Shown in pieces: positions 27,406-50,364 of a DNA stretch of 64,000 bases; position 1 is the first letter of the stretch, and each line of letters begins with the position of its first letter. The notes beneath the pieces were generated by a model. That model saw nothing but the letters and a program-made list of their open reading frames with translations. It made no database searches and was not told the origin of the DNA. Origin of the DNA: Euryodendron excelsum (taxonomy: Eukaryota > Streptophyta > Magnoliopsida > Ericales > Pentaphylacaceae); the NCBI GenBank assembly GCA_033060915.1, contig CM065386.1:11889501-11953500 (forward strand). Direction: 5' to 3'. Position numbers and translations under genes: made by a program.

Positions 27406-28763
27406 TGATTACACTCTAAAAGTGTAATCTCAATTCTCTAATTAGTGGATTGTTAGTTCTAGTTTAGGTAGTAGATTAGAATTTTATCCTTAAATTGTCC
27501 TAAACATGCCTTTTTAATCTAATTGCAAAGAATGGAGCTCAATTGTAGAATAAATGTCCAAAAGTGTATAACCAAGCAATTACTCAATGCAATCGAGCGA
27601 TTGCCAAAGCAACCGAGCGATTGCCAATCCCACCAAGCACTCGGACGTCAGGAAAATGCACCGATTGCTATATTCTGTAAGCCTGTACAGCTATTTGATT
27701 AAGGAGCGCTAACTTCAGAAAGTTGTTTTCACAGTTTGATTCAGGAGCACTAGCCTAAGCGCTCGACCGAGCAATCGGTAGTTCCACCAAGCGCTTGCCT
27801 TACGGAGCCCTACTTTTGTTTAGCGTATAAAAGACTGTTTTAGGCATTTTTTGGAGAGATCTCTCATTTTTGTACTTAGATATTGTAGATATATTGTTCT
27901 AGGAGTATTTCTAGATAGAGAGAATAAATTTTTGCTTGTTTTCTTGCACTTTCTTACATTTTCCTTGTATCCAAACACCATAGTTTATCAATTTCAATGC
28001 AAGATCTTCATTTCTTAAGGCTTCTATTATAGAATCAAGTAGCTGAACCCCAATTTCAGTGCAAGTGTGAAGATTTGCCACAGATATTCAAGGATGTCCT
28101 TGGAGTTATAAGAATCTCATTGAATTATTTTAAGAATTCTCTAATTCTACTTGATTAAGTTTTGGATCTATTAGAAAACTTAGGTTCATAACCCATTTTA
28201 GTAACTTTTATGCACAATTCTTTAACTGGCATACGGATTGCACAAATATATGGTTTGAACGTATGATTCTATTAATAGCTTATACTTTTAATCTCAAATT
28301 GCGTATGAATCCATGGTTTTATGGTCGAAATCCTTCGAATCAAGGATCCATGGAGTGATCATTGATTTGAGTTAACAAACCTCCATTGGAATTCTTGTTG
28401 AACTTGGTAAATTGAATCAATTGTATCCAAATCCCATTTGATTTCAATAGATTCTCAATAGCTTTGCTTAGTTGATAGTTTACTTGTTAATTATTCTTAA
28501 ATTCCTTGGTATAATTGTTGAATTTCAATTAGCTTTATTTGAATTGCCTAGTTGTTAGTAAATCACCCTTTTCAAAACTAAAAGCTTTTTGGTCTACTTT
28601 TGTTACCCTTAGAATCCATTTCATTTGATTTGCAATCCAATTTGAGTGATTCCATTATGAGTTGACCATTCATTTCTATATTGGAATCAATTCTATAGGA
28701 AGAACGATAACGAGAGATTAACCGGTAAACTACATTTTAAAACCCCATACAGTTGCGGGATCA
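27406..28763 (+). repeat. 5' LTR of the outer element
   Basis: Starts TGATTACACTC with a perfect 8-bp head stem (GATTACAC/GTGTAATC) and ends GCGGGATCA just before the primer site. U3 holds a cluster of GAGCGATTG, CGAGCGAT and GCGCTCGACC motifs (about 27585-27810), followed at once by TATAAAAG at 27826-27833. The conserved GATTTGAGTTA block is near 28364. Confidence 0.9.
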
Positions 28764-28773
28764 AACCAAGTTT

Positions 28774-28790
28774 TAGCGCCATTGTCAGGG
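28774..28790 (+). other. Primer-binding site, decayed tRNA-Asp type
   Basis: Reads TAGCGCCATTGTCAGGG, 10 bp after the LTR end. It differs at four positions from TGGCGCCGTTGCCGGGG, the complement of the 3' end of plant tRNA-Asp, which Athila-type elements use as primer. Confidence 0.8.
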
Positions 28791-29109
28791 ATTGGAGGCA
28801 CAAGGCGAGCTTTGGATGAACTTGGATTTAGTTGCGGATAGGTGGAATTGGATCTCTGTATCCACCTCAAAGGAAGCATTTACGGCTTAGGGCCAATCGT
28901 ATATCCTTCTTCCCTTTTTATATGAATATTTGTGCTAGATTTTTGTTTATTCTTTTCTTAGTTTGTTTTGTTTGATTAGTGTAATTGCATTGCATCTTGC
29001 TAGGAGCCTAATTGGCAGCATAGTTTGGAGGATAGGTTAGTGTGCTATATTTTTTAATTGATGGTATTGTCTTTGCATGTGGAGATTGGAGAATTTGAAT
29101 TGAATTAGA

Positions 29110-29158
29110 AAAAAGCCGTTGTCCAGTAATTACATTGAGAAAAAGTCATTGTTCGGCA
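29110..29158 (+). repeat. 30-bp-period leader motif, two copies
   Basis: AAAAAGCCGTTGTCCAG is followed exactly 30 bp later by the related AAAAAGTCATTGTTCGG. The same motif, also at a 30-bp period, lies at the equivalent place in the inner element (45711-45753). The role is unknown; the position, between primer site and gag, is where packaging or dimer signals occur in retroelements. Confidence 0.8.
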
Positions 29159-29167
29159 TTATGAATT

Positions 29168-31404: not shown

Positions 31405-31740
31405 TCACCCCCAATCTTTGTCACTTAGGAGTAGTTGTTTTGTTTTCTTTGTTTTTTTTTTTCTTTATATCTTGGCCTAGTCCTTGTTGGGAGGAATGTT
31501 TCTCCTTGGTTCACTCTTCTTTCCTTTGCTTTTGCCCTATCTTTCTCTCTTCCTTTGGCATGCAGTAGGGACATTGCATTGTTTAAGTTGGGGGGATACT
31601 ATCTAGGATGGTTTTAATTGTTAGTTTGTAGTTTGTGTTCTTAGCTATTTTGTAATTTGTAGTTGGTAGTTTGTTATTAGCTTGTTTAGGGTTTTATGGA
31701 ATTTTTCTTCATAGACATGTAATTTTTTTTTGTAAAAATT
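31405..31740 (+). other. pol deletion junction and internal G-tract (outer element)
   Basis: Protease-RT linker sequence ends near 31400. From about 31570 the text (ACATTGCATTGTTTAAGTT) belongs to the region after integrase. AAGTTGGGGGGA at 31585-31596 resembles the polypurine tracts before the 3' LTRs. RT, RNase H and integrase, about 3.2 kb in the inner element, are absent. Confidence 0.7.
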
Positions 31741-31750
31741 TTGGCTTTTT

Positions 31751-31985
31751 TGCTCAACTGAGCGATTAGGCTATTTCGCAAGGTCAGGTGAGTGCTCGAC
31801 CACCTCAACAACGTTTGGGCTCCTGAGAGCAATTATTACCAAAGCTAGCAAAGTTAAGTGTAAGCGAGTGCACGGCCGAGCGATCGATTACTCAAGGAAC
31901 TGCTCGTCTCATGCAAGCTAGCGCACAGTTTAAGTGACCGAGCGCTCAATGTCAAGATTTCTATATAAGGCTGAGTGCTCAGCTC
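31751..31985 (+). promoter_or_regulatory. Internal palindrome cluster and TATA box before env-position ORF
   Basis: A cluster of GAGCGATTAG, GAGTGCTCGACC, GAGCGATCGA and CGAGCGCTCAA motifs of the same type as in this element's LTR U3. It is followed by a TATA box (CTATATAAGG, 31961-31970) and, about 245 bp later, the ATG of the env-position ORF at 32214. The layout repeats that of the LTR promoter. Promoter function is inferred. Confidence 0.65.
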
Positions 31986-32213
31986 CTTTTTTATGAGCGA
32001 TTTGTTATGAGAACAGTTTCTTTGAGAGGGAGTATTACTTTGAAGTGGCGAAGCCCTGATGGAGCATTCTGGTGGACCCCGTTTCCCTATCTTTCTATTC
32101 CCAGCTTTCCTATAGGTATTCCCTAGCACTCTTCCTCTAGTCTTTTTCATTTCCTTTCTTGTTTTAGGAGTTAGGGGAGTTATGTTATTGCTCTATTGTC
32201 CTCGTCTTCTACC

Positions 32214-33478
32214 ATGGTTGGTAGCGGACAAGCTCCAGGGGAGGGATTAGAGGTTGTTCGGGTTGGAGCTCAGCGTATGCATAGAGAGGCCCAGGTGCCC
32301 TAATTTGATGAGTCCCAATTTATCAGTATTGATGCAAAGAGAGCTTTTGATCAGCTTTAGGGCTAGATAAGCACTGTTTTAGAGCGGCGTTGGGTTCTTA
32401 CTCAGTTTTATACGAAGCCTTATTTATGGCTTGAGCCTATGACCCAGCGCCATTGGTTAGGGTTGGTTAGATTCAAGAGCCAATGTCGAGCCACACTGGT
32501 TGTTAAGTTCATGGCCAACGTCTCCTTCACCTCTGATACTTAGGGGCAGGTGGCTATTAGGTCTTAGGTGAGGGGTAGGGATATTGAGATTACCCCAGGT
32601 ACTTTTGCTAGATTTTTTGACCTCCCGAGGACTGCGAACCCTCAGTTTAGGTATGACAGGTTTAAGTATGACAGGATAGGACAGGAGCTCCCGATCATAG
32701 GACGATGATTGCCGAGGTGTTAGCCCCCAGTGAGACTTAGTTTACTTCGCAGGTACTCAAGATGGTACTTACCTTTAAATATTAGCCTCTCTTCCTCTGG
32801 TCCTGTTACACTCTTTTCTTACTGGGATGGACTGTGAAGTGCAGTAGATTTAGAGGTCAGATTATGTGGGCTATTAGGCAGGGTAAGTCCATTGACTTGC
32901 CCCATTTTCTTTTCATGGCACTTTTGGCCGACACTAGATTAGTGACCATATAGGCGAGCATCCCTTTCGGATGTTTCATTATTTTGATGATAGGGCATGC
33001 TCGGGTTGGACCTATGCCCGATATTGTCACGAAGACCTCAAAGAAGGACATTGATCTTTCTTTGGGGAACAGAGCATCTGGGCAGATTTAGGGTATCCAA
33101 AGGAGAGCTCAGCAAACAGCTCAGCAACAACCTCCACTAGATCAACAGGCACAACAAGGGCAGGATGATCCCGGTTTAGTCGAGCTTTTTTAGTAGCATA
33201 GTCAGTTGATGAAGCTGCATTCTCATACTCTCGCTACTATACATGAGCAGTTAGCAGCTTCTCAGCGGTTAGTTTTGGATCAGTAAATGGAACAAACTCA
33301 GTAGCAAACTACTATTACAGGCAGATTAGATGCTCAGGACATTGCTATAGCTGCTCTCTCAACCCAGATGACTACCATTCAACAGCAGTAGTAGAGTCAT
33401 TCTACTAGTCTTCAAGAGACCATTCGGCAGATGGAACATCCACCATCAGATGGTGATGATGTCTTCCCATTCTTATAG
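32214..33478 (+). pseudogene. env-position ORF remnant (outer element)
   Basis: It starts at ATG 32214 in a good context (ACCATGG) and can be followed through several stops to 33478. Recognisable blocks are RRWVLTQFYTKPYLWLEPMT, WLGLVRFKSQCRATLVVKF, VRGRDIEITPGTFARFFDLP and a Gln-rich C-terminal part. The inner element has clear counterparts in the same order (37913-39214). The N-terminal block resembles the domain that Pfam calls a putative plant transposon protein, found after integrase in Athila-type elements. Its function is not known. I see no signal peptide or transmembrane segment, so 'env-like' describes position only. Confidence 0.75.
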
Positions 33479-34791
33479 AGATTAGATACTTGTCATACTT
33501 GCATGTCGTATCATTTCATACCATGTTGTATCTAAAACTCTATTTTTATTATAATGAAGTTATATTTTGAGCTTTGTTGTATATCTTTCATTGTATCACC
33601 TTTATCTCTTATGCGTGGATTGTATAGCTATAGGTGCGATATGACATTGTTATCTTTCGACTACTTGTACCATTTGGTAGAGACTTGGGTATTGTATGGT
33701 CTTGATATCATTTTTTTTATTGCTTTGGCACATTTATCCATGTACTCTTCATATTGATTTCTAGCTATTCATGGTGGATGTGTTAATTCTCTATTTTCGA
33801 GGTACCATAACATTACTTGTAAAAGTTCCACTTGAGATTAAAAGATAGAAATCTTTGCATGCATCTTTACTCAAGTTAATATTCATTTACTCTTTACACT
33901 TAACATATTATGGGTTTTGCTTTATTCATAAATTAGTAGAGGGGATTACATCATTACACACAATCATGCTTTATAACATCATTTATACTATCTTTTGCAT
34001 GCCCATCATTACATTAGTGGAGATTTCTATCTAATGAGCTTTAGAGCATTTTTCACCTTTCGGAATGATTACATTTACTCAATGATTAATTCTTCATCCT
34101 CATTTCCTCAATAGCTTCATTATACTTGCATTTGATTTATGAGTTGAGTATTGTTCTTGATATTGACACTTATACTCTATGAAATGCTTTGGTTGAGTAA
34201 TTTGGGATATGATTCTTGGTCCTTATGCTTCTTGATAGCCATGAGTTTTCCATTATAAAACCATATGTTCCTTTGACCCTCTTTGACCCATTTTCTTCAT
34301 TCTTTTGTTGAAATGCACAGTAATACTACTTCCTATCTTGTACTTGCAAAGTGATGCCTTTGTTGAAAAGAGTACTATGTTAAGGCATTGAAGAAAGCAA
34401 AAAAAAAAAAAAAACGAAGGAGGGAAAGAGATTGATTGGGGATTTCAATAGAAAAAAGTGCATATTATGAAGTTAAAAATATTGAATGCAAAAAAAGCAA
34501 AATAAAGAAAGAAAGAAGAAAAAGAAAGAAATGTTATCAAATTGAAAGAAGTATGAAAAAAAGAGAAAAATGCTTAGAAAAATGTTTTTGGAATTGAAAA
34601 GGAGAAGAGTTGGAATTGCTTAATCATTTATCATTTCATGCCTTGATCACAGAAGACTTGACCTTTCTCTATCATCTTTAACCCTTATCTCTTGTACCTT
34701 CTAAACTAACTTTCTACCAGAAAAGGGCCTAGTTGATCCTGTATATGCTTGATTGAGGATTTCATTAGAATATAAGTCATTTATTGTCAAC
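33479..34791 (+). other. 3' noncoding region of the outer element, left part
   Basis: AT-rich, no coding sequence. Includes an A-rich tract (34398-34560). It is broken at 34791 by the inner element and resumes at 47640. The last five bases, TCAAC (34787-34791), are the left copy of the inner element's target duplication. Confidence 0.75.
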
Positions 34792-36303
34792 TAACACGCC
34801 TCCAAATGTGCTTCAACTGGAGCCACTCCGCAAGAGTATGGAGGTCGCGCTTGCAGTAAAACCGAAGGATCCGGTGTCGTTCTCTCCCAAGGAAATTCTG
34901 CAAATATAGCAACAAAGCTCAACTAGCATGGGTACTTATCTTAATGGATTGCAAATGAAAATTCTTATCTTTTCCTAACATAAAAGAGACCGAAAATATG
35001 TTGGTTTTGAGATGATGGTGGTTCAATGCTTCATGCAATAATTTAATGACTAATAAAGACAACTAAAGCTAGTTTTATGCAATTATGAAGAAAGACTTGG
35101 TCATGGTTGTTTCAATCCACCAATTCACAACAAGGGTCTCCAATGAGAGGTTTATAACTCAAATCAAGAATCTCACCTTGGATTCTTGATTCGGAAAATG
35201 TCGACTATAAAAATGTGGGTTTTTGTTTGATTGAGCATAAAGAGGGAATCTATGATTGGCACCCTAGAATCAAACCTTAGACATGTGCAATACCTATACC
35301 AAACATTGATTTGTGCATAAATATTGTCAAGGGGTTATGAATCTAAGTTTTTCTAATGAATTTCATACTAAATCAAATGAAACCATATAATTTTGAGGAT
35401 ATGACTTTAAAGTTCATACAACCCATTTTCAACCCTTTGAAAATCCTTGGTAGATCTTCACAACCACATCCAATGGGTATTTAGCTACTAGAATCCATGT
35501 CAAATAACATAAAAGAAGCCAAATCTACCATTAAACTATAAAGAACTAGTGTTTGGTTGCTAAAAAAATGAGGAAAAGTGCCAAGAAAATGATAGAAAAT
35601 TACTAGAAAAAGTAGAAAATCATTCACTTCATATATATATCAAGCATTCATTTACAATGATCCAAAAGCAATAAATGACATTAAATACAAAGCATTAAAA
35701 GTAAATATAACTAAAAACCTTACGAGATAACAAAAATTCCCTTTTTGGAGCTTCTTCACTATCCATCTTTTGCAGAAAATGCCCTAGCACCTTTTTTGTC
35801 TCGAACATATGGCTTTTATACTCTGCAGAAAAACAGAGCCTGTACACACCGATCGATCGGTAGGCGACCGATCGATCACCTGATCGAACGGTCCAGGCAA
35901 TCGAACGCCCAATCGATCGTAAAACCGACCCCTCTGAAGTTTGCTTTTGTATAGTCTGTTGAGGAAATTCTGATGTCACCGATCGAACGACCGATTAATT
36001 GGAAAAACACCCTCTCTGAAGTTTGCTGCAGAAGGTCGAACAAAGGATCACCGATCGATCGCAAGATCACCGATCGATTGGCCGATCGAACGTTCCGTGG
36101 ACCGTTTGATCGGGCGATCGATCGGCCGATCGATCGCTCATCCCCGCATTTGCCCATTTGCCTTAGTTTAAGCTCCAATTCTTGCAAGAAGTGCACAAAA
36201 AGAGTTTTAATGGGTTTTAGGAGTTAGAATACTAAATTAACACTAAATTCAACTAATCAACTAACAATTTAAGCCAAAAGATTACTATTTCTAAGAGTAA
36301 TCA
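34792..36303 (-). repeat. 3' LTR of the inner element
   Basis: On the minus strand it starts TGATTACTCTTAG and ends GGCGTGTTA. The head stem is GATTAC/GTAATC. The palindrome cluster (35848-36142) contains repeated CGATCGATCGG. The TATA box (TATAAAA on the minus strand) is at 35814-35820. It aligns with 46167-47634 but has about 84 bp more in the right part of the cluster and lacks about 34 bp in the left part. GTTTAGTTGGGGGGTGT (36304-36320 on the plus axis, read on minus) is the polypurine tract just outside. Confidence 0.92.
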
Positions 36304-37912
36304 ACACCCCCCAACTAAACCTTTGAGAGTCCTATCAAAGTACGAGAGGAAAACAAAAATATACACATGTATTAATCTTATTCAATTCAAATCTCCATCC
36401 ACCTAGATTGTGAACCATCGCAAGGCAAAGGTATAAAGCATGGAAGAAATAAAACACATTGACGCATACTACCAATGACATATAATCCTAATGATTCAAA
36501 ACTCGTACAATTACGTCCTCGATGCTTCGATCCAAGTCTCACAAGGCATACACTCAACTTTGAACATGAACACTCATGGTCCCTCAATGGAAAGCTCTTT
36601 TAACGAGTAAATGTATAAACCATGCATGTAGAGCAATTCCGAAACCAAAAACGAAGAAATTGTAAGTGTATCGACTTGGCATAGCTTCATGAAGGAATAT
36701 TCACAGCTTAAGCATAATCTAGAAAATTGACATAAATGTCTTATACACAATTGAATTAAAGATTCATGTATCTTCAGATATCAAGGCCATAAGGGTGATG
36801 AATGAAAGAAGAGCCATGTAAGAGGATAAAAAGTGGAAAAAGGTTTCAACATATGCATGCGCATTACACATGATGATCAATGATATTCACTTCCACATTT
36901 CCAATCTTTTGAATCACTTTTGCAATCTTCCTTCACCTCACTTCTTTTGTATTTGATTTTTTTTTTTTTTTTGGGAACACCTTTTCATCCCTTTCTATGT
37001 ATATATATATTTTTTCTTTACTCTTCAACTCCATACACCTCCAACTTTACAAATATAAGAGCAATGCATCTATTGGCATTGATACTTTTTAAACTTATGC
37101 ACATGCATATGAACATTAAAAAGAAGAAGAATGGAATGAAATGGCTCAATGGAATGAAATGGCGTATGTGTTTAGAATCCGAAGAATACAACAAATCAAA
37201 ACTTCAAAAGTGTATAAGGGGTCAATAAATCTATCTAACACTCGAACATGCAAACCAACATCAAAATATAATGAAGCTATTCAATGAATGAGGATCAACA
37301 AAAAATAATCTTGAATAAATGTGATTCACTCTTCAAAGGCGATAAATAGGCTTTAAAGCTCATATGGTAAAAATCTCCACCTTATAAGGACATGCATGCA
37401 TAAGAATGAAACACAAGGCATCACATAACATGTTAGTGCCCAACAATGTGAATTGTATCTTATAATGATTTTATGCCAAAAACTTGCAATGTATCATAAT
37501 CTCTAAGGTGGGTTAATCATCAACTCAAATGTAATAAAAAACATGGTATGGTACTTGTTTGAAACAACCTTGACACCTTATCACAAAAATCCAAAAAGAA
37601 ATGGTATCAACAATTAAGGACATAGCTAAGGTGTCAAGTTATAGAAAAGAGCGATACAGATACCATACAATACCCATTACCTCAGTCGGAACAATATATG
37701 CGATATGGATATCAATCAAAAAGGATATCTGTAACTGAAATGCCAAAATATACCCGTAATAGACAAAATAATACAATAAATGTATACAAAAAGGGTATGC
37801 CACAATAGGAAAGATTACTATACAAAACAGCTCAAAAATAAATACATCCACTATAATAAAAAAGATTTAGATATATCATATGAAATAAAATGCTATGAAG
37901 TGCACAATGCAT
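36304..37912 (-). other. Polypurine tract and 3' noncoding region of the inner element
   Basis: Contains the polypurine tract TTGGGGGGTGT next to the LTR. The rest is non-coding and collinear with the outer element's 3' region; for example 36650-36710 (minus) matches 47650-47720 (plus) around 'cttccatgaagctatg'. The short open frames on either strand here have no similarity and are treated as chance. Confidence 0.7.
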
Positions 37913-39214
37913 CTAATCTAACTGGAGATCCAAAAAGAAATCTCTATCATCATCCGGAGGAGGCTGGCCAAGGTGCTGGATAATCTCCTAGAGTCGAGTG
38001 GACTGGGTCTGCTGCTGCTGCTGAATGTCAATCAGCTAACCCTGAAGTGTAGCAATGGCAGTGTCTTGAAGATCTAATCTAGCCATAATGTCGGCCTGCC
38101 ACTGCTGGTGCTCTGCCTGCTGACTGGTCAACTACTCCTGAATGGCTGCCAAAGTCTGAAGTAACGTCCCCTGAGCTGGCTTCTCCTGAGCCTAAGCCTG
38201 AGCCTGAGCCTGAGCCTGGGGCTGCGCTGGCTGCCCTGTCTGATCCTGCCGCTGCTCCCCTAACTGGGTCTCCTCCTGAGTCTGAGAAGGCGGCTGCTGA
38301 GAAGATGAGTGAGCCGAACTAACTGACCCCCCCTTCTTCGTCAACTGCCTTGCCGCTCTCTTCTCCGTCTTCTAGTCTATGTCAGTCGAAGAGGAAAGCA
38401 ACACAACATCTGCAACACTAACCCCTGCCGCCCTAATCCTCGTTGTCAGAAAACAACCAAAGGGGATACTGGACTGGGGAGTAGCAACCTAAGTCGCGGC
38501 CCACAATGCCATATACATGAAGTGGGGCAAGTCAATTGTCCTACCCATGCCAATAGCCCACATCAACTGCCCTCGCATCCTACTACACTCCACCGTCCTC
38601 CCCAGTGGAAAGATCGAATAGCATGTCCAAAGGAACAGCGGGTGGTATCTAGGGGCAATCTACCTAATCCTAATCTGAGATGCGGTCTAGGACTCTCCCG
38701 GTGCTAAAATCTCGGCACACATCTCCTCATGAGATTGTGGATACTCCCCATCACAAGAGAACTGAGGGTTAGCAGCCCTCGGTATACCAAACTGCTCAGC
38801 AAAGGAATCCGGGGTGATAACAACATCCCTACCCCGAACCCAAGAGCGAAGAATATGTCTGTCGCCACCAACGGGGTCTGATGAAATGTTAGTCATGAAC
38901 TCTGTGACGAGGGTGGCTGAGTATTGGCCTCTAAAAGAAGCTAACCCCAACCACTGGCGATCGGTCAAAGGCTGGAGCCAACCATATGGCTCAGCATCAA
39001 ACTGACTCACTGTCCAACACCTCTCCACTACTACCTTACGGGCACTCCACACCCGTCCAAACTCTCGCTCCTGATCTCTCCCCCGGAAACGAGTAGTATC
39101 ATACTCTCCCTCTCTCTCCCTCCTAGCATGCTCACGCTGGAGCTGCTGGAACTGGGCCAGAGTTTGAGAAGTCCCCGCCCCAGCTGCACCCTCAGTACTC
39201 CTAGTCTCGACCAT
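37913..39214 (-). pseudogene. env-position ORF (inner element)
   Basis: The start is the ATG at 39214, and the frame is open for 175 codons to 38687. After that stop, homology to the outer copy continues with more stops to 37913. N-terminal part: MVETRSTEGAAGAGTSQTLA, FDAEPYGWLQPLTDRQWLGL, then VRGRDVVITPDSFAEQFGIP. C-terminal part: a Gln/Ala/Pro-rich segment with QAQAQAQAQ, ending GQPPPDDDRDFFLDL. The outer copy has the same layout at 32214-33478. Known similarity is only to a plant-transposon domain of unknown function that lies after integrase in Athila-type elements. The low-complexity C-terminal half could mediate protein contacts. No membrane segment is seen. Confidence 0.75.
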
Positions 39215-39426
39215 AACTCTCTAATAAAGCCAAGTACAGCTGGAAATGAACAGAATGGACAAAGATCGGCGGAAGTAATACCTCTCGAAGCCCAGAAACC
39301 CATGAAAAGGCTAGAGAAAGTCCACCAAAATAAGCTGGCAGGGCCTCGCTGCTCCGATATACGAAAAGGCTCTCAAAACTCTCAATTTCTCACAAGTGAA
39401 ATGAGAATGAACAGTGAACAGTGGGA

Positions 39427-39675
39427 TTTTATAGACAACTCGGTTACCGATCGATCGGCTCTTTAAACCGATCGATCACCTCGCAGACCGATCGAAATGG
39501 AGCGCAACCGATCAAACGGCCGATCGAACGTCCGATCGATCGATACTGCTCCCTTTCGATCGGTGCGGTAATAAGCCCGATCGATCGCAGTCTTCACCGA
39601 TTGATCGCCCGATAGATCGCAATGTACACGATCGATCGGCCGATCGATCGGTTTGGCCCACCGATCGATCGCAAA
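39427..39675 (-). promoter_or_regulatory. Internal CGATCGATCG cluster and TATA box (inner element)
   Basis: Seven copies of CGATCGAT plus variants (CGATCGAAC, CGATTGATCG, CGATAGATCG) lie within about 230 bp. On the element strand they are followed by TATAAAA (39427-39433), then about 210 bp to the ATG at 39214. Both the palindrome and the adjoining 'ctctctgaagttttgcag' phrase (39682-39699) also occur in this element's LTR U3. It looks like a second copy of the LTR promoter module placed to drive the env-position ORF. Confidence 0.7.
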
Positions 39676-39737
39676 TACAGCCTCTCTGAAGTTTTGCAGA
39701 AATTCTCAGAAATTTTCACAGCAACAAAACAATGGTG

Positions 39738-39753
39738 CCCCCCCCCCCCCCCC
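39738..39753 (-). repeat. 16-nt G tract (C on plus strand)
   Basis: On the element strand it reads AGTTG followed by a long G run and then CACC. The context CTAGTTGGGG resembles the element's own polypurine tract (TTTAGTTGGGGGG). The outer element has AAGTTGGGGGGA at the matching place (31585). Confidence 0.8.
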
Positions 39754-40013
39754 AACTAGAATCATGCCATGACCTCAAGGTATGAGGAAAATGGACGAGA
39801 AAAAGAACAACGGGGCAGGCGGGATGCTCGGGAATAGAAATGTACACACTATCTATCAAAAAGAAAAGAGAAAGAAACCTATAAAAAGGAAAACAAAAGA
39901 ACTACTCCTAAACTATAAAACACGACAATCTAATGTCACTCAAAGGACGGTGGATCAATGAGATCCACACAATCCAACTCCCCTTGGAATGACTCAAAAT
40001 ACGGCTTTAGCCG

Positions 40014-41308
40014 CTAACCATTCACCTTAAATGCCGAGCCATTTGTGAGATTTTGCACCTCAATGGCTCCATGGGGAAAAACTTCTTTCACTAGGTATGG
40101 CCCGGTCCACTTACTCGGCAACTTGCCCAGAAATAGATGCAAGCGTGAATCATACACTAACACTTTTTGGCCAACTTTGAAAGTTTTTCGAATAATATGT
40201 TGGTCATGAAAGTGTTTCATCCAGGCCTTAGCAATTTCTCATTTTCAAATGCATCATTGCGGAGTTCATCTAACTTATTGAGTTGGAGTTTTCGGTGGGT
40301 ACCCACAATATCAATATCCTCATTACATTGACAAATCGCCCAATATGCTTTATGCTCAATTTCGACGGGAAGATGACAGGCCTTCCCGTACACAAGTCTA
40401 TAGGGTGATGCGCCAAGAATGGTTTTATAACCCGTGCGGTATGCCCACAACCCATCGGTCAATCTAAGAGACCAATCTTTCCTATTAGGATTGACGGTTT
40501 TCTCAAGAATGCGCTTGATTTCCCGATTGGCCAACTCTTCTTGCCCTTGCATTTGAGGATGGTATGGCAATCCAACCTTATAGACCACTCCATACTTACG
40601 CATTAAAGACGCAAAGGGCTTGTTACAAAAATGTGAACCGCCATCACTTATCATGGCACGAGGCATGCCATACCTACAAAAAATGTTCTCTTTCAAAAAT
40701 CGCAAGACCACTTGGTGGTCATTACTTCGGGTGGCAATTGCTTCCACCCACTTAGAGACATAATCTACCGCAACAAGAATAAAAAGGTACCCACACGAGT
40801 TAGGAAACAATCCCATGAAATCGATCCCCCAACAATCAAATATTTCCAAAATAGTGATGGGTTGAAGAGGCATCATGTGCCTCTTAGAAAATGTTCCTAA
40901 CCGTTGGCACCTATCGCAAGCTAGACAAAAAGTATGTACATCCTTGAACATGGTGGGCTAATAAAGCCCACATTGCAAAATTTTGGCCGTGGTTTTCTTG
41001 GAGGAGAAGTGTCCTCCACAAGCATGAGAGTGACAAAACTCTATTACTTGTTGAAATTCATGATTTGGGATACACCGGCGAATGATTTGGTCCGAACAAT
41101 ACTTAAACAAGTGAGGATCATCCCACGAAAAATAGCGCACATTCCGAAAGAATTTACACTTGTCAATGGATGACCATGTGGAAGGAACCTCACCGATGAC
41201 AAGGAAGTTTGCAATGTCCGCAAACCAAGGGGTTGAAACTTGCTCAACGGCACTCACATGCATGGGATGCTCATCCGGGAAGTGCTCCTTGATAGGGGTT
41301 GGGTCCAT
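40014..41308 (-). pseudogene. Integrase (inner element)
   Basis: On the minus strand an N-terminal zinc region reads CHSHACGGHFSSKKT, then, after an in-frame stop near 40955, CLACDRC. The catalytic core shows [20 protein letters not shown] (first Asp), [14 protein letters not shown] (second Asp) and [11 protein letters not shown] (Glu), so the DDE triad is visible. After a frameshift near 40218, the C-terminal GPY/F-type module reads KLPSKWTGPYLVKEVFPHGA. Integrase inserts the cDNA into the host genome. The stop and the frameshift inactivate this copy. Confidence 0.92.
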
Positions 41309-41311
41309 GGC

Positions 41312-43252
41312 TCACCCATTTAAGGGAAGCCGAGACAAGTGGTCCGCAACTACATTTTCAACCCCTTTTTTATCACGTATTTCTATATGAAATTCTTGGA
41401 GCAAAAGTATCCATCGAATGAGGTGCGGTTTTGCATCGGGTTTTGTGAGGAGATACTTTAGGGCCGCATGGTCGGTGTAGATGATGACCAATGACCCAAT
41501 CAAGTAAGACCTAAATTTGTCTAGTGCAAAAACCACCGCAAGGAGTTCCTTCTCGGTTGTGGTATAGTTGATTTGAGCTTCATTAAGAGTTTTAGAAGCA
41601 TAATAAATGACATAAGACTTCTTATTAACTCTTTGTCCTAGGATAGCCCCCACGGCATAGTCGCTAGCATCACACATTAGCTCAAATGGAAGAGAGCAAT
41701 TGGGTGCTCGAATGATTGGGGCTGTGGTCAAAAGTTCCTTCAACTTGTCAAAAGCTTGTTGACAAGAGGATGTCCACTTAAAGGGAACATCTTGGGACAA
41801 AAGATGACACATAGGCCTAGAGATTGCACTAAAACCCTCAATGAAACGCCGATAGAAACCGGCATGCCCAAGAAATGATCTAACCTCCTTCACACATGTT
41901 GGGGCGGGCAATTTTTGAATGTGTTCAATTTTTGCCTTATCAACTTCAAGCCCTTCGGCCGACACTATATGCCCCAAAACTATACCACTAGTAACCATAA
42001 AATGACATTTTTCCCAATTGAGCACAAGGTTACTCTCCCCACATCTCATCAAAACTTTTCCTAAATTACCAAGACAACCTTCATAAGTGTCCCCATAGAC
42101 CGAAAAATCATCCATGAAGACTTCGACAATTTGCTCAACCATGTCGCTAAATATGCTCATCATACACCTTTGAAATGTCACCGGTGCATTACATAGCCTG
42201 AAGGGCATAAGTTTATAAGCATAAGTGCCAAAGGGACAAGTGAATGTTGTCTTGGCTTGATCCTCAAGGGCTACATCAATTTGATTGTACCCCGAATATC
42301 CGTCTAGGAAACAATAGAAAGCCTTGCCGGACACCCTTTCTAGGACTTGATCAAGGAAGGGTAAAGGGAAATAGTCCTTTCGGGTCACATTATTGAGGTG
42401 GCAATAATCAATGCACATTCGCCACTCTGTTTGCACACGGGTTGGCACTAACTCATTGTTGTCATTTCTTATCACCGTGACACCCGACTTTTTAGGCACC
42501 ACTTGGGTCGGACTAACCCATTTCGAATCGGAGATGGGGTAAATGATACCCGCATCTAGCAATTTTAAAACCTTACCTTTAACCACTTCCTTCATATTGG
42601 GATTTAATCGCCTTTGCATTTGACGAATGGATTTAGCCTCCTCTTCTAAAAAAATGCGGTGAGTGCACACGAGAGGACTAATCCCATGAAGGTCGGCGAT
42701 AGTCCATCCTAGGGCTTTTCTATGTTTCCTTAGCAATGTTATCAACCCTTCCTCTTCGCTCCCAGACAAGCTAGAGGAAATCACAACCGGGTACGACTCC
42801 CCATCCCCTAAAAATGCATACTTTAAATTGGAAGGTAAAGGCTTCCTCTTAGGAATGGGAGGCTTCTCCTTCGACGGAATTGGTTTCTCGGCACTAGGGT
42901 GGAGGGGTTCAAAAGAAGAGGTCCATTGACCCACATGTAAACACTCCTCTCTCTCACCCTCTAAATGAGACAATTCACTTGACGCCATGCCCTCACTATC
43001 AAGTGAAGCATGCGGTTCACCTCTCACTAAGGCCCTCTCCAAAGGGTCCTCAAAAATCTCCCGCTCAAAGTGTTCTTGAACTATGCTCTCTATGATGTCT
43101 ACCTCCCGGATATCCTCACATTCCCCCTTTTGTTTGGCAACCGAAAAGATGTTAAGCTCGAAGGTGGTGTTGCCAAAAGACAATTTCACTAACCCATTCC
43201 TACAATGTATGATGGCATTGGAAGTAGCTAGGAAAGGGCGTCCCAAGATCAC
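41312..43252 (-). pseudogene. pol: Reverse transcriptase and RNase H (inner element)
   Basis: A 646-codon open stretch. It starts at the end of the protease ([16 protein letters not shown]), passes through a linker, then [42 protein letters not shown], and the active site [12 protein letters not shown] (FMDD, a normal variant of YxDD). RNase H follows with [34 protein letters not shown] and [12 protein letters not shown]. These copy the element RNA into DNA. One oddity is MPFRLCNAP where the family reads MPFGLCNAP, a Gly-to-Arg change in a conserved RT motif. A TGA at the end separates it from integrase, which lies in the same polyprotein in active relatives. Confidence 0.95.
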
Positions 43253-43870
43253 AGGAATTTGGTTGTGAGCTATACAACTCTCAACAGGTTGGGTGTCTAG
43301 GATAATGAAATCGACCGGGAAGCAAAAGTTATCAACTTAGATGAGAACATCCTCGATGATACCTCTTGGAACCTTTATAGAACGATCCGCTAATTGCAAG
43401 GTAACACGAGTAGGGCTCAACTCTCCTAGGCTAAGCTCCTTATACACTGAAAAGGGTAAAAGGTTGACACTAGACCCTAAGTTTAACAAGGCACGATTGA
43501 TCTTGTTATTCCCAATGGTACAAGAAATAGTAGGACATCCGGGGTCCATGAATTTTGGCACAATTTTACATTGCAAAATCACACTTTGATTTTCGTTCAT
43601 CATGGCGGTTTCCTTGACATGCAACCTTCGCTTAAAAGTGCATAAGTCTTTTAAGAACTTAGCATGAGAAGGTATTTGCTTGATTGCGTCAAGGATAGGG
43701 ATGTTGACCTTTACTTGTTTGAACACTTCATAAATTTTCGCATTTAGAAGTTCATTTTTTTGTTTGGTCAACCTTTGCGGGAAGGGAGCATGTTTGACTA
43801 TGTCCCTTCCCTTATCCCTCTCACTTTCACTCAAAATATCGATGGGATTGGCTAAGTTCTCCCCCCTTCT
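43253..43870 (-). pseudogene. Protease region (inner element)
   Basis: The minus-strand open frame 43834-43337 reads KNELLNAKIYEVFKQVKVN, VKETAMMNENQSVILQ and then LLNLGSSVNLLPFSVYKELS. In the outer element the same place reads LVDLGSSVNLLP. The catalytic Asp of the aspartic protease is thus Asn here, a single transition. A TAA near 43336 interrupts EDVLI-VDNFCFP before the frame resumes at 43252. Another frame change separates it from gag near 43870. The protease would cleave the Gag-Pol polyprotein, but this copy cannot. Confidence 0.9.
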
Positions 43871-43875
43871 CTCGG

Positions 43876-45675
43876 CTATTTTTCCTTTTTCTCTTTCTCT
43901 CCTTGGCCAACACTCTTCCTAGAAGTCTCATCCCGAGGTGGGATAGTTTTATCAATGGTCTTGCCACTTCTAAGGGTGGTAATGGCTTGCACTTGGTCAT
44001 GACTCGTACTAAGGTCACTCTTACCCTCGGTTATGTGCACTTGCCTAACTGCCGGGTTAGGTTGAGGTTGAGCCGGGAATCTTCCCGGGACATTTTGGGT
44101 CAAAGCCTGTGTCAATATAGACATTTGCTTTTGGATGTCCTCAAGTAACCTAAAGTGTTGGTCTAATACCTTCTCTTGTTTATCAACCCTTGAACTAACC
44201 CCCCTCATGTCATTGGCAAGTTGGTAAACATTGTCCTCTAAGGGCTTCCTATGGGGGGGTTGGTATGGCCTTGGTTGATTTTGGAATTGGCTCACGGGTG
44301 CTTGTTGGTACGGTGGAGGTGGATGTTGTGGTGGGAGTGCTTGTGGGGGTGGAGGTGCTTGGTATGATTGAGGGTTTTGATACCCTCCTTGGTAGTTGTG
44401 GGAGTTTGAAGTCCCTTCATTGTTCCTCCACCCAAAGTTGGGATGATCTCTCCATCCCGGGTTGTATGTGTTTGAATAGGGGTTACCCCCTCCTCTTGAA
44501 TATTGGCCAATTGCATTAACTTGGCCATGCAAAGCCTCCTTCACACCTAGAATGATTGGGCATGAAGAGGTGGTATGATCCGAGGTTTCACACACATGAC
44601 AACATATTTCTCTCATCTCCTCACTCTCTACCGATTGAACATTTTTCACCTCAAGAGCCTCTAATTTTCTTGCCAAGGTAGCCACCCTAGCATTGACATC
44701 ATCAACTTCCTTGAGTTGATATCTTCCCACCCCTTGTTGGATTGAGCGACCCTCAGGATTTTGGGTCCCGATAAGTGCCCAATCTCTAGCCTTATTTGCC
44801 AAGTTATCTAAATAATCCTATGCCTCATGGGGTTGCTTATCAAAAAACGTCCCCGCACACATAGACTCGACAAATTGCTTGAGTTGGGGTGTCAAGGAAG
44901 AATAAAATGTGTTGATGACATGCCAACCGGCAAAACCGTGATGGGGGCAAGAATTTAAGAGGTCTTTGAACCTCTCCCAACATTGAAAGAAAGTTTCCCC
45001 CAACAAAGGAGAAAACTGTGAAATTTGCCTTCGAATGGCCTCGGTTCGATTTTCGGGAAAAAATTTGCTCAAAAATTCCCCTTGGAGAGTAGCCCAAGAA
45101 TGGATGGACATGGGTGGCAAGGAATTGAACCAAAACTTAGCTTTGTCCTTCAAACAAAATGGGAAGAGTTTCAACAAAAATACTTCCCTTGGACATGAGT
45201 TGTCCATAGCAATTGAACAAGCATCCTCAAATTCCTTAAGAAAAACGTAGGGTTGTTCCGAATCCATCCCGTGGAATTGAGGCAACATTTGCATCATTCC
45301 TGACCTAATGTTTAGAGTGTTGTGATGGGGTGGGAAAATAATGCACGATGTTGGTGCTTGCCTTGGTGGGTTTAGGTAGTCCCGGAGAGTCTGTATAGGG
45401 CGGGCCGCCACGTTGCCATGGTGGCTCCCTCTTTCAATCTCCTCATGACCTTCCGGGTTGATTTGGACATTTGGATGCAAAGGTTGAATGTTAGGTAAGC
45501 CGGGTTCATTAGGATTTGCCATTGGAATGAAACCTAAGTCGACCACTAATGGTAAGCTAGGTGTTGGTGAAGATGTGCTTGTGCTCTCAATACTTTCAAT
45601 CCTCACAAGGCGATGATGTTCGTCCCTCGTGAAATATGATATGCAAGAATGAATGCACACATAAGGTTGGACCAA
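43876..45675 (-). pseudogene. gag: gag (inner element)
   Basis: Two open stretches, 45675-44818 and 44802-43876, separated by a single stop codon. First part: SHHGNVAARPIQTLRDYLNP, MLPQFHGMDSEQPYVFLKEF, LPPMSIHSWATLQGEF and SSLTPQLKQFVESMC (capsid region). Second part: RDWALIGTQ, a coiled region with RKLEALEV, the zinc knuckle CHVCETSDHTTSSC (CX2CX4HX4C), and a Pro/Gln/Tyr-rich segment with APPPPQALPPQHPPPP. Gag forms the particle and binds the RNA. If the one stop is ignored, length and order are those of a complete Athila-type gag. Confidence 0.92.
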
Positions 45676-45710
45676 TAGGGTCGTTCAGCACATCATAGAA
45701 AATTCTCTAG

Positions 45711-45753
45711 GCCGGACAACGGCTTTTTTTTCAATTCTAGGCCGGACAACGGC
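45711..45753 (-). repeat. 30-bp-period leader motif (inner element)
   Basis: GCCGGACAACGGC occurs at 45711-45723 and 45741-45753, exactly 30 bp apart. Read on the element strand it is AAAAAGCCGTTGTCCGGCC just before gag, as in the outer element (29110-29158). Confidence 0.85.
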
Positions 45754-46166
45754 TTTTTCTCAATTCAACTCCGTACCTCCAATCTCCACATACAATAAGC
45801 GTACCACCAATTTGAAACTTTCACACACTAGCCTAGCTCCACTAAATACTCCCGAAGAGGGATAATTTCCTAACAAAAATGTAATGCAATTATACTATAT
45901 CAAACAAAAAAAACTAGAGAAAAGAAGAAATAAAAAATAATCCTAAAAATAAAACACCTTAAGGGAAATGAGAGTGTATCGGGGCCCGAAGCCTGTAGAT
46001 GCTTCCCTCGGGAGTGGTGATGAAATCCACCCTTTTTGTGTGTGTGTGTTTTTTTTTTCTTTTTGCTTGCTCTTTTTTTTTTTTTTTTTTAATTTTCTTC
46101 CGCAATTCTTAGCGTTCGTCCAGTGTAGCTTTTGCCTATGAACTCTCTGGCAACGGCGCCAAAACT
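45754..46166 (-). other. 5' leader and tRNA-Asp primer site (inner element)
   Basis: On the element strand, TGGCGCCGTTGCCAGAG (46161 down to 46145) begins a few bases after the LTR end. It matches the complement of the plant tRNA-Asp 3' end at 15 of 17 bases. The leader between it and gag holds T-rich tracts and a (GT)n stretch on the plus strand near 46040. The open frame at 45943-46191 is chance. Confidence 0.88.
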
Positions 46167-47634
46167 TGACACGCCTCCAGATGTGCTTCAACTAGAGCCA
46201 CTCCGCAAGAGTACGAAGGTCGCGCTTGTAGTAAAACCGAAGGATCCAGTATCGTTCTCTCCCAAGGGAATTCTACAAATATAGCAACAAAGCTCAACTA
46301 GCACGGGTACTTATCTTAATGGATTGCAAATAAAAATTCTTATCTTTTCATAACATAAAAGAGACTGAAAATATGTTGGTTTTGAGATGATGGTGGTTCA
46401 ATGCTTCATGCAATAATTTAATGACTAATAAAGACAACTAAAGCTAGTTTTATGCAATTATGAAGAAAGACTTGGACATGGTTGTTTCAATCCACCAATT
46501 CACAACAAGGGTCTCCAATAAGAGGTTTATAACTCAAATTAAGAATCTCACCTTGGATTCTTGATTCGGAAAATGTCGACTATAAAAATGTGGGTTTTTG
46601 TTTGATTGAGCATAAAGAGGGAATCTATGATTGGCACCCTAGAATCAAACCTTAGACATGTGCAATACCTATACCAAACATTGATTTGTGCATAAATATT
46701 GCCAAGGGGTTATGAATCTAAGTTTTTCTAATGAATTTCATGCTAAATCAAATGAAACCATACAATTTTGAGGATATGACTTTAAAGTTCATACAACCCA
46801 TTTTCAACCCTTTGAAGATCCTTGGTGGATCTTCACAACCACATCCAAGGGGTATTTAGCTACTAGAATCCATGTCAAATAACATAAAAGAAGCCAAATC
46901 TACCATTAAACTATAAAGAACTAGTGTTTGGTTGCTAAGAAAATGAGGAAAAGTGCCAAGAAAATGATAGAAAGTTGCTAGAAAAAGTAGAAAATCATTC
47001 ACTTCATATATATATCAAGCATTCATTTACAATGATCCAAAAGCAATAAATGACATTAAATACAAAGCATTACAAGTAAATATATCTAAAAACCTTACAA
47101 GATAACAAAAATTCCCTTTTTGGAGCTTTTTCACTGTCTAGCTTTTGCAAAAAATGCCCTAACACCCTTTTTGTCTCGAACATACAGCTTTTATACTCTG
47201 CAGAAAAATAGAGCCTGTACACACCGATCGATCGGTAGGCGACCGATCGATCACCCGATCGATCGGTAGGCGACCAATCAATCGCTCGATCGAACGGTCC
47301 AGGCGATCGAACGCCCGATTGATCGCAAAACCGACCCCTCTGAAGTTTGCTTCTGTATAGTCTGTTGAGGAAATTCTGACGTCACTGATCGAACGACCGA
47401 TCGATCGGAAAAACGCCCTCTCTGAAGTTTGCTGCAGAAGGTCGAACAGAGGATCACCGATCAATCGCTCATCCCCGCATTTGCCCATTTGGCTTAGTTT
47501 ATGCTCCAATTCCTGCAAGAAGTGCACAAAAAGAGTTTTAATGCGTTTTAGGAGTTAGAATACTAAATTAACACTAAATTCAACTAATCAACTAACAATT
47601 TAAGCCAAAAGATTACTATTTCTAAGAGTAATCA
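46167..47634 (-). repeat. 5' LTR of the inner element
   Basis: Minus-strand LTR starting TGATTACTC and ending GGCGTGTCA. The palindrome cluster is at 47222-47472, the TATA box (TATAAAA on minus) at 47189-47195, and the conserved GATTTGAGTTA-like block near 46530 (reads GAGTTATAAACCTC on minus). It is 44 bp shorter than the 3' LTR. By eye I see about 13 differences in the first 205 bases from the low-coordinate end and fewer elsewhere. Confidence 0.92.
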
Positions 47635-48233
47635 TCAACTTTTTTAAATCAATGCTGAACTATGAATATTTCTTCCATGAAGCTATGTTAGGTTGATACA
47701 CTTATATCTTTTTCGTTTTTGTAATTTGTATGTTCACTTGATTTCCTTTTACATTTACTTTATTATTAAACATGCCATTGTGAAAACCATGTAGGTTTTT
47801 ATTTGTGAGTATATGCCTTGTGAGTTGTTGAATCAAAGTTTAAAGGTTTGAGTTTGCATAAGTGTGTATCATTTGAAGTTATAGAGCATGATTCTTCACC
47901 CACACAGTTGAACCTCTCTTTTATATGAATGATTGCATATTTTTGCATTTGTTAAGGGATAGGATGATATCTAATGTTTTCTTGAGATAGATTATGTATA
48001 TTTTCCTTATTCTTATCTCGAATTACAATTCACAAAGAGTTGTTTGTAGGTATCATTATTGAAAATCCTCACGAGATACCACTCATCCACTAGAGGTAAC
48101 TTAGAGGTTTAAAAACTTGATGCATAAGCTAAATGTACCCGTGACTCCTACGAAAATAGAGATTATCTTGTGTGCATACTTGCTTTAGTTGTAGATTTTG
48201 CTAGGAACTAGCAAAAAGCTAAGTCGGGGGATG
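47635..48233 (+). other. 3' noncoding region of the outer element, right part
   Basis: Begins with the right copy of the target duplication (TCAAC, 47635-47639). It continues the outer element and ends in the polypurine tract AAAAAGCTAAGTCGGGGGATG-like sequence at 48213-48233. No coding sequence. Confidence 0.85.
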
Positions 48234-49540
48234 TGAATACACTTCAAAAGTGTAATCTCAATTCTCTAATTAGTAGATTGTTAGCTCTAGTTTAGGTATT
48301 AGATTAGTATTTTATCCTTAAATTGTCCTAAACATGTTTTTTTGATCTAATTGTAGGGAATGGAGCTCAATTGTAGAAGAAATGACCAAAAGTGCATAAC
48401 CAAGCGATCGCCCAATGCAATCGAGCGATCGCCAATCCCATCGAGCGCACGAACATTGGACAAATGCACCAATTGCTAGATTCTACAAGCCATTTTAGCC
48501 GTTTGATACAGGAGCGCTAACTTCAGCGAGCTATTTTCACAGTTTGATTTAGGAGCACTAGTTGAGCACTCACCTTACGGAGCCCTACTTTTGTCCAGCG
48601 TATAAAAGACTGTTTTAGGCCCTTATTTTTTGGAGAGATCTCTCATTTTTGTACTTGGATATTTTAGATATATATTGTTCTAGGAGTATTTCTAGAGAGA
48701 GAGAATAGATTTTCTCTTATTTTCTTGCACTTTCTTACATTTTTCTTGTATCCAAACACCATAGTTTATCAATTTCAATTCATGATCTTCATTTCCTAAG
48801 ACTTTCTATTATGGAATCAAGTAGCTAAACCCCAATTTGGGTGCAATTGTGAAGATTTGCCAAAGATCTTCAAGAATTTCCATGAAGGTACAAGAATCTC
48901 ATTGCATTATCTTAAGAATTCTCTAATTTTACTTGATTGAGTTTTGGATCTATTAGAAAACTTAGGTTCAAACTCATTTTGGTAACTTCTATACACAATT
49001 CTTCAATTGGCATAGGGATTGCACAAATCTATGGTTTGAACATATGATTCTATTAATAGCTTATACTTCAATCTGAAATTGGGTATGAATCTATGGTTTT
49101 ATGGTCAAAATCATCTAAATCAAGGATCCATGAAGTGATCATTGATTTGAGTTAACAAACCTCCATTGAAATTCTTATTGAATTTGGTAAATTGAATCAA
49201 TTGCATCCAAATCCCCTTTAATTGCCTTAGAATCTCAATTGCTTTGCTTAGTTGATAGTTTAGTTGTTAATTGTTCTTAAATTCATTGGTATAATTGTTG
49301 AATGTCAATTCGCTTTATTTGAATTGCCTAGTTGTTAGTGAATTACTATTCTCAAAACTAAAAGATTTTTAGTCTGCTTTTGTTACCTATAGATTCAATT
49401 TCATTTGATTTGCAATCCAATTTGAGTGAGTCCATTATAAGTAGAGCATTCATTTCTATATTAGAATTAATTATATGAAAAGAATGATAACCGGGGATTA
49501 GCTAGTAAACTATATTGCAAAACCGTATACTTGAGTAAAA
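48234..49540 (+). repeat. 3' LTR of the outer element
   Basis: Starts TGAATACACTTC, with one change in the head stem relative to the 5' LTR. The palindrome cluster (48398-48590) is shorter than in the 5' LTR: one roughly 20-bp unit (AAAGCAACCGAGCGATTGCC) and most of the GCGCTCGACC part are missing. TATAAAAG is at 48601-48608. The end is blurred by divergence and placed at about 49540. Confidence 0.88.

Positions 49541-50298: not shown

Positions 50299-50364
<66 letters not shown>

What the first reader, a model, noticed from the sequence alone, without database searches (positions are those of the whole stretch)
27585..48608. Promoter palindrome cluster plus TATA box present twice per element: in the LTR and ahead of the env-position ORF
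In both nested elements a dense cluster of short CpG palindromes sits directly upstream of a TATA box in U3 (27585-27833, 48398-48608, 47189-47472, 35814-36142). A second cluster of the same palindrome, again with a TATA box, lies inside the element about 200-250 bp before the env-position ORF (31751-31970; 39427-39675). This is seen in the sequence. The inference is an internal promoter that makes a separate mRNA for the extra ORF, sharing its regulator with the LTR. I cannot tell whether this layout has been described for the lineage.
Basis: partly seen in the sequence, partly recalled or inferred. Interest (0 to 1): 0.85.

Follow-up and report, generated by a model that had tools for sequence, protein, structure and literature searches.

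The report
Repeated promoter module inside plant retrotransposons
Several families of large plant jumping genes appear to carry a second copy of their own on-switch just ahead of an extra gene, which suggests that the extra gene is switched on separately but by the same regulator as the whole element.

Summary
Two nested Athila-type (Ty3/gypsy) retrotransposons each carry CpG palindromes plus a TATA box in U3, and a second such cluster plus TATA box 219 or 252 bp before the ORF at the env position. The host genome (1.06 Gb) supplied relatives. In the inner family, 30 of 30 loci read (the window's own included) have the internal cluster and a TATA box at a near-fixed distance. In the outer family, 9 of 10 fetched copies align through the TATA site, 5 of 10 with it intact. 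Two further families have the layout with TTCGAA-type palindromes. LTR and internal module share the palindrome type in each family (three types, four families). Each internal cluster follows a polypurine tract like the 3' one. In families 2 and 3 a canonical internal TATA box is missing, but a leader intron precedes the ORF; two intron-free copies indicate splicing. Best reading: an internal promoter co-regulated with the LTR. No transcript start was measured. Ty1/copia Sireviruses showed the layout in 2010, so this is a new variant of a known kind in an unrelated lineage.

The parts
27406..28766 (+). outer element, 5' LTR (approximate ends)
   Evidence: the repeat finder pairs it with 48230-49366; LTR pair 88.1% identical, K 0.13
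27585..27820 (+). outer 5' LTR U3 palindrome cluster
27826..27833 (+). outer 5' LTR TATA box TATAAAAG
28771..28790 (+). outer PBS-like site (decayed; tRNA-Asp type by analogy)
   Evidence: sequence; no tRNA was aligned; analogy with PMC1142308
31585..31595 (+). outer internal PPT-like tract AAGTTGGGGGG
   Evidence: aligned in relatives
31751..31950 (+). outer internal palindrome cluster
   Evidence: relatives
31962..31969 (+). outer internal TATA box TATATAAG
32214..32590 (+). first part of the remains of the env-position ORF (broken; end approximate), homologous to the inner ORF
   Evidence: translation; its 58-aa piece hits inner-family ORF places at 54-61%
48226..48230 (+). outer PPT G-run before 3' LTR
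48232..49530 (+). outer 3' LTR, truncated at its 3' end (approximate)
48398..48590 (+). outer 3' LTR palindrome cluster
48601..48608 (+). outer 3' LTR TATA box
34787..34791 (.). target site duplication TCAAC (left; second copy at 47635-47639)
34792..36306 (-). inner element, 3' LTR (upper end uncertain by about 3 bp)
   Evidence: LTR pair 96.0% identical, K 0.041
35814..35820 (-). inner 3' LTR TATA box
35850..36136 (-). inner 3' LTR U3 palindrome cluster, 13 CGATCG
36307..36316 (-). inner PPT AGTTGGGGGG before 3' LTR
38687..39214 (-). env-position ORF, first 175 codons and the in-frame stop of this copy; partial PF20167 domain
39427..39433 (-). inner internal TATA box TATAAAA
39448..39671 (-). 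inner internal palindrome cluster, 16 CGATCG
39681..39694 (-). AAACTTCAGAGAGG box shared with the LTR U3
39738..39757 (-). inner internal PPT-like tract AGTT followed by 16 G
40217..40957 (-). ORF with integrase core (rve)
41312..43336 (-). ORF with reverse transcriptase and RNase H
44818..45684 (-). ORF with gag domain
46149..46164 (-). inner PBS TTTTGGCGCCGTTGCC (tRNA-Asp type by analogy)
46167..47634 (-). inner element, 5' LTR
47189..47195 (-). inner 5' LTR TATA box
47225..47407 (-). inner 5' LTR U3 palindrome cluster, 9 CGATCG

Best explanation
The internal cluster plus TATA box is a second RNA polymerase II promoter of the element. It sits behind an extra polypurine tract and drives a separate mRNA for the env-position ORF (a PF20167 protein). 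It is built from the same type of CpG palindrome as the family's U3 promoter, so one DNA-binding regulator (host or element-encoded) can set both promoters. Shown: the layout, its recurrence in four families, the within-family motif match, and intron-free copies that imply splicing of the leader in families 2 and 3. Inferred: promoter activity, the separate mRNA and the shared regulator.
For: Clusters exceed shuffles. Inner family (family 1): 30 of 30 loci read, the window's own among them, have TATAWA between -216 and -230 from the ORF ATG, 10-22 CGATCG between -600 and -200 with at most 1 elsewhere in 3.5 kb, and a G-run upstream. LTR stretches: of 7 fetched, 6 show PPT, 8-24 CGATCG and GTATAAAAG; one (L082) showed no LTR. 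The box AACTTCAGAG is in 27 of 30 internal modules and in 6 of those 6 LTRs. Outer family (family 4): 9 of 10 fetched copies align; 5 of 10 keep TATAWA in place, 4 have a decayed form. Family 2: 27 of 30 loci hold GTTCGAAC, and the one LTR read holds 8, then CTATAAATAC. Family 3: 8 TTCGAA in each of the 2 complete modules read; 7 in the one LTR stretch read, 6 of them in U3 before a TATA-like run. Three motif types counted in 6 LTR and 5 internal sequences group by family. In families 2 and 3 the region looks like a gene: cluster, T-tract/TTTAA site, exon, GT-AG intron, ATG.
Against: No RNA data. Family 1 loci were taken in order of protein score and are close copies (median dS 0.043 over 339 of 435 pairs), so their agreement partly reflects recent common origin; the independent evidence is across families, where the LTRs of families 2 and 3 rest on one copy each. 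A canonical TATA box follows the cluster in 1 of 30 family 2 loci and in neither family 3 module. The motif match is not exclusive: families 2 and 3 are not resolved from each other (for example 8-mer sharing 0.144 with the own LTR and 0.142 with the other), family 4 is weak (z 3.9 against 3.0 with a family 1 LTR), and the family 2 module shares more 8-mers with the family 1 LTRs than chance (z 5.9 and 7.4). Upstream ATGs lie between TATA and ORF ATG (one in the inner leader, four in the outer). The two intron-free copies (L055, L073) keep palindromes upstream of the presumed start, so those RNAs began further upstream, most simply in the LTR. Acceptor-like sites in the leaders fit splicing from an LTR donor.
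Confidence: 0.72

Rival explanations
1. The ORF is expressed by splicing of an LTR-started genomic RNA, as reported for barley Bagy2 (PMC7264820, passages). The internal cluster is not a promoter but a relic or an RNA/DNA element.
For: Bousios et al. state that splice acceptors were predicted for BAGY2 and Athila. Acceptor-like TTCATTTCCAG and CTATTCCCAG lie in the leaders (read by eye, not scored). L055 and L073 show that longer RNAs were spliced before reverse transcription.
Against: It does not explain why a cluster of the family's own LTR palindrome type stands before a TATA box at near-fixed distance in 30 of 30 loci, nor why the motif type goes together in LTR and internal module across families. 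The intron seen to be removed lies between cluster and ATG; it does not remove gag-pol.
Confidence: 0.15
2. The match between LTR and internal arrays comes from copying (template switching during reverse transcription, or gene conversion), not from a shared regulator; the internal array may have no function.
For: A PPT followed by U3-like sequence looks like a copied PPT-U3 segment. In the outer element about 110 bp soon after each PPT align weakly (score 47, reached by 0 of 200 shuffles, for the 3' LTR; score 39, reached by 9 of 200, for the 5' LTR). Athila families recombine often (PMC2410132, passages).
Against: No long ungapped copy was found: the best stretches are 35 bp at 88.6%, which includes one palindrome, and a 22-bp palindrome. 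Longer gapped alignments in the inner element score almost as well against the reverse complement (116 against 102, 100 against 91), as palindromes would. Copying could explain the origin but not the near-constant TATA spacing.
Confidence: 0.1
3. The CpG-palindrome arrays are mainly targets for chromatin control (silencing or anti-silencing) at both sites rather than activator sites.
For: The motif types all hold CpG. VANC proteins of VANDAL elements bind short motif arrays in non-coding regions and induce loss of methylation (PMC5735166, passages).
Against: Position directly before a TATA box favours a promoter role. VANC21 motifs are arrayed in one orientation; these are palindromes.
Confidence: 0.1

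Closest known systems
Sirevirus (Ty1/copia) repeated motifs, Bousios et al. 2010 (PMC2829016; passages and section 9 seen)
   Same: CG-rich palindromes clustered in the LTR before a conserved TATA box and again before the ENV gene (77 of 79 linker copies before ENV); the palindrome differs between elements; extra PPTs; internal promoter supported as a hypothesis.
   Different: Other superfamily (Ty1/copia). Mostly a CGG-CCG core rather than CGATCG, CGAGCG or TTCGAA. The authors could not conclusively identify an internal promoter. Their extra PPTs mostly lie after ENV.
Athila4 / Calypso lineage (Wright and Voytas 2002; not held; known here only from other papers)
   Same: Ty3/gypsy Athila clade, env-position ORF, one extra PPT in the linker (stated in PMC2829016); Calypso uses a tRNA-Asp PBS (PMC1142308).
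   Different: Splice acceptors were predicted for Athila (stated in PMC2829016). No palindrome cluster or internal TATA box is mentioned in the passages that I saw.
Foamy virus LTR and internal promoter under Tas (PMC8670036, PMC4929722; starts of abstracts in a search listing only)
   Same: One transactivator acts on the LTR and on an internal promoter.
   Different: Animal retrovirus; no homology was sought. Here no element-encoded activator is known.
VANC / VANDAL anti-silencing (PMC5735166, passages)
   Same: Family-specific arrays of a short motif in non-coding DNA that vary between related elements.
   Different: DNA transposon; motifs in one orientation rather than palindromes; relation of the proteins was not tested.
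Grande gene23 (PMC7264820, passages)
   Same: A retrotransposon accessory gene transcribed from its own promoter.
   Different: Antisense gene; no motif shared with the LTR is mentioned in the passages that I saw.

Membership tests
Athila clade (Ty3/gypsy, OTA) | gag, RT, RNase H, integrase in Ty3/gypsy order | tested here: met
   Retrotrans_gag, RVT_1, RT_RNaseH and rve in that order in the inner element; protease gave no Pfam match
Athila clade (Ty3/gypsy, OTA) | no additional RNase H domain (present in Tat) | tested here: inconclusive
   No second RNase H in the 7 ORFs scanned; ORFs under 150 aa were not listed
Athila clade (Ty3/gypsy, OTA) | placement in an RT phylogeny | not tested
   No tree was built
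Athila clade (Ty3/gypsy, OTA) | sense ORF between pol and 3' LTR of Athila type | tested here: met
   PF20167, E 2.9e-08, 34.2 bits, below Pfam's gathering score of 45 in this truncated copy; a sunflower Athila ORF is similar to PF20167 (PMC11728184, passages)
Athila clade (Ty3/gypsy, OTA) | PBS for tRNA-Asp a few bases after the LTR | tested here: inconclusive
   TTTTGGCGCCGTTGCC stands just after the inner 5' LTR; Diaspora and Calypso use tRNA-Asp (PMC1142308); no tRNA was aligned here
Sirevirus | Ty1/copia domain order and Sirevirus PPT AGGGGGAG | tested here: not met
   RT before integrase; PPT is AGTTGGGGGG
plant core promoter with TATA box | TATA box at a near-fixed place downstream of the motif cluster in related copies | tested here: met
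   Family 1, 30 of 30 loci; family 4, 5 of 10 intact and 4 decayed. Not met in family 2 (1 of 30) and in the 2 family 3 modules
plant core promoter with TATA box | measured transcription start | not testable with these tools
   No RNA data
retroviral envelope gene | signal peptide and transmembrane segment | tested here: inconclusive
   Highest 19-residue hydropathy mean is 1.58 among 7 homologues, in the conserved part; no dedicated predictor was run

The most novel reading that the evidence does not exclude
The env-position protein (PF20167) is itself the regulator: it binds the family's palindromes in the LTR and in its own promoter, as a family-specific transactivator or anti-silencing factor, so that protein and palindrome evolve together, in the manner of foamy-virus Tas or VANC.
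Probability: 0.2. Interest if true: 0.9.

Novelty: new variant of a known kind. Interest (0 to 1): 0.62.

Why it matters
How plant env-position ORFs are expressed, and what they do, is unsettled (PMC2829016 and PMC7264820, passages). A doubled promoter module, of a palindrome type that goes with the family, in a second and unrelated superfamily suggests that such elements arrive repeatedly at two co-regulated promoters. That makes a regulatory rather than envelope role testable, and it offers a direct experiment: four families, three palindrome types, one protein family.

Tried and rejected
Structure of the ORF protein: two predictions on homologue P0006 gave mean pLDDT 36.3 (8 sequences) and 50.7 (47 sequences); no fold search was run on them. 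A scan of viral contigs gave no relative of the RT protein. Search for spliced copies: one family 2 junction word gave 0 places, the other 1, which is L055 itself; the family 3 junction search did not complete. I considered the internal module as a recent transplant of the LTR and set it aside for lack of a long ungapped match. dN/dS of the family 1 ORF (median 0.20 over 339 of 435 pairs) is not used as strong evidence, because the loci were picked by protein score. A further control (elements without the ORF should lack the internal cluster) was not run.
Full report
Anatomy. Repeats in the window define two nested LTR retrotransposons. The outer one is on the plus strand, with LTRs at about 27406-28766 and 48232-49530 (the latter truncated), 88.1% identical, K 0.13. 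The inner one is on the minus strand, 34792-47634, flanked by the duplication TCAAC, with LTRs 96.0% identical, K 0.041. The inner element encodes gag, RT/RNase H and integrase in Ty3/gypsy order, then an ORF with a partial PF20167 match at the env position. The site after its 5' LTR looks like the tRNA-Asp PBS of Diaspora and Calypso (PMC1142308, passages). I call them Athila-type on domain order, PBS and ORF type; no RT tree was built.

The observation. CGATCG occurs 45 times in the window, 41 of them in the six named intervals; CGAGCG or CGCTCG occurs 8 times, all in them. Shuffles that keep dinucleotides do not reproduce CGATCG in the inner element (0 of 300 in each of its three clusters). 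The outer clusters exceed shuffles too but are thinner, and the word counted there was chosen after reading them. Each cluster is followed, in the element's own direction, by a TATA box. The palindrome differs between the two elements but is alike in LTR and internal cluster within each. In the inner element a 35-bp stretch at 88.6% identity, made of one palindrome and the box CCTCTCTGAAGTTT, is shared by the 5' LTR and the internal module.

An extra PPT. Both elements have a tract like their 3' PPT just before the internal cluster: 31585-31595 in the outer, 39738-39757 in the inner. PPT to TATA is about 370 bp (3' LTR) and 366 bp (internal) in the outer element, 487 and 305 bp in the inner (from positions). 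So the internal module has the order of a 3' LTR start: PPT, U3-like palindromes, TATA. For the outer element a weak match after the PPT was seen for one LTR (score 47, reached by 0 of 200 shuffles) and was marginal for the other (39, reached by 9 of 200). One extra PPT in the linkers of Athila4 and Calypso is mentioned by Bousios et al.; the original paper is not held.

Relatives of the inner element (family 1). The window lies in a 1.06-Gb genome; a 21-base palindrome word of the element has 420 forward and 427 reverse matches there, its reversed control none. A protein search gave 150 scored matches out of 2755 candidates; I examined the 30 best, the window's own among them, for which loci were cut. 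All 30 have TATAWA between -216 and -230 from the ORF ATG, 10 to 22 CGATCG between -600 and -200, at most one elsewhere in 3.5 kb, and a G-run upstream. Several have open frames of 427 aa. These are close copies (median dS 0.043), so part of the agreement is shared ancestry. I fetched downstream stretches for 7 of the 30; 6 show PPT, 8-24 CGATCG and GTATAAAAG, and one (L082) shows no LTR there. The box AACTTCAGAG is in 27 of 30 internal modules and in 6 of those 6 LTRs.

Relatives of the outer element (family 4). The 58-aa piece of its ORF found relatives, and also places of family 1 ORFs at 54-61% identity, so the two ORFs are homologous. I fetched the leaders of 10 of the 150 matches, the ten best after the window's own. 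One (L092) does not align (55%). In the other 9 the TATA site reads TCTWTATAAGG or a form one or two bases away, with intact TATAWA in 5 of 10. The last palindrome is recognisable in 8, though GAGCGCTC itself is intact in only 2 (L085, L090).

Two more families. P0004-like ORFs (family 2; loci were cut for 30 of 106 matches) have GTTCGAAC palindromes instead: 27 of 30 loci hold at least one. The one LTR that I read (L071) has eight, then CTATAAATAC. Family 3 has 8 TTCGAA in each of the two complete internal modules read (L074, L076) and 7 in the one LTR stretch read (L072), 6 of them in U3 before TATATATATATC. A third family 3 locus (L075) was largely N and a fourth (L073) is rearranged upstream. 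Counts of three motif types in six LTR and five internal sequences group by family, not without exceptions (for example 2 CGATCG in one outer LTR). Sharing of 8-mers is highest with the own LTR in each case, but families 2 and 3 are hardly told apart (0.147 against 0.128, and 0.144 against 0.142), family 4 is weak (z 3.9 against 3.0), and the family 2 module also shares words with family 1 LTRs above chance (z 5.9 and 7.4). I therefore count three palindrome types in four families.

The leader intron. In family 2 the cluster is followed by a T-tract ending in AAA or AAG (20 of 30 loci by a regular expression, at least one of which, L068, lies in a decayed palindrome), by a canonical TATA box in 1 of 30, and by TTTTAT in 3; 4 had none of these and 2 no palindrome. 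A donor AAGGTAAT[CT] was found in 17 of 30 loci, and an acceptor just before the ORF start is seen in the four copies printed. Family 3 is alike in L074. One family 2 copy (L055) and one family 3 copy (L073) lack just this intron, which is best explained by reverse transcription of a spliced RNA. L055 keeps upstream sequence like the end of pol, PPT-like tracts and palindromes, so its RNA began upstream of the internal module. This supports splicing, not an internal start. A search with the junction as in L055, allowing 3 mismatches, finds only L055.

The protein. Homologues of 366-398 aa exist, for example in Actinidia rufa. They have a conserved middle part, a helix near the C terminus in a low-confidence model, and an acidic tail. 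Hydropathy peaks are modest. The models are too poor for fold comparison. Nothing here shows DNA binding.

Mechanism. I favour a second pol II promoter, co-regulated with U3, for a separate ORF mRNA. The near-fixed TATA spacing, the motif match within families and the gene-like leader support it; lack of RNA data, upstream ATGs and the missing TATA box in two families count against certainty. A spliced LTR transcript remains possible, and both may operate. Concerted copying between the two arrays could keep them alike without a shared regulator.

What is known. Bousios et al. 2010 described palindromes in Sirevirus LTRs before a TATA box and, in nine ENV-bearing elements, also in the linker, 77 of 79 copies before ENV, with none in the linker of four ENV-less elements; they took this as support for an internal promoter but could not conclusively identify one (passages and one section seen). 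My ten paper searches, of which I saw listings and then passages of nine papers, showed no report of the layout in Athila elements; the library lacks most subscription papers, so this is weak evidence of novelty. In Arabidopsis, Athila env ORFs show omega of about 0.2-0.3, and ESTs are listed under env as well as gag (PMC2410132, passages).

Verdict. Real, recurrent in four families, and a new variant of a known kind, in a lineage unrelated to the one in which it was first seen.

Noticed in passing
L055 (G000:C20:28752149-28753273 region) and L073 (G000:C1:9481400-9483200): Copies of families 2 and 3 that lack the leader intron, traces of reverse transcription of spliced RNA.
   Followed up: partly
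L073, about 430-1450 in reverse orientation: By eye, LTR-like sequence sits between the RNase H region and the ORF leader, where integrase would be expected: a recombinant or nested remnant. Not aligned.
   Followed up: no
39738-39753 and L012-L040: The internal PPT G-run varies from 7 to 55 G among the 30 family 1 loci, while the 3' PPT has 6 G in the window and in the 6 copies read.
   Followed up: no
50301-50368: A run of about 68 G lies in a GC-richer stretch beyond the outer element.
   Followed up: no
31963-32216 and 39212-39433: The leaders between TATA and ATG share GCGARGCCCTG and TGGTGGAC between the two families although the palindromes differ (by eye).
   Followed up: no
9496-9900 and 12802-12988: Tandem arrays of 159-bp and 93-bp units outside the elements.
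   Followed up: no
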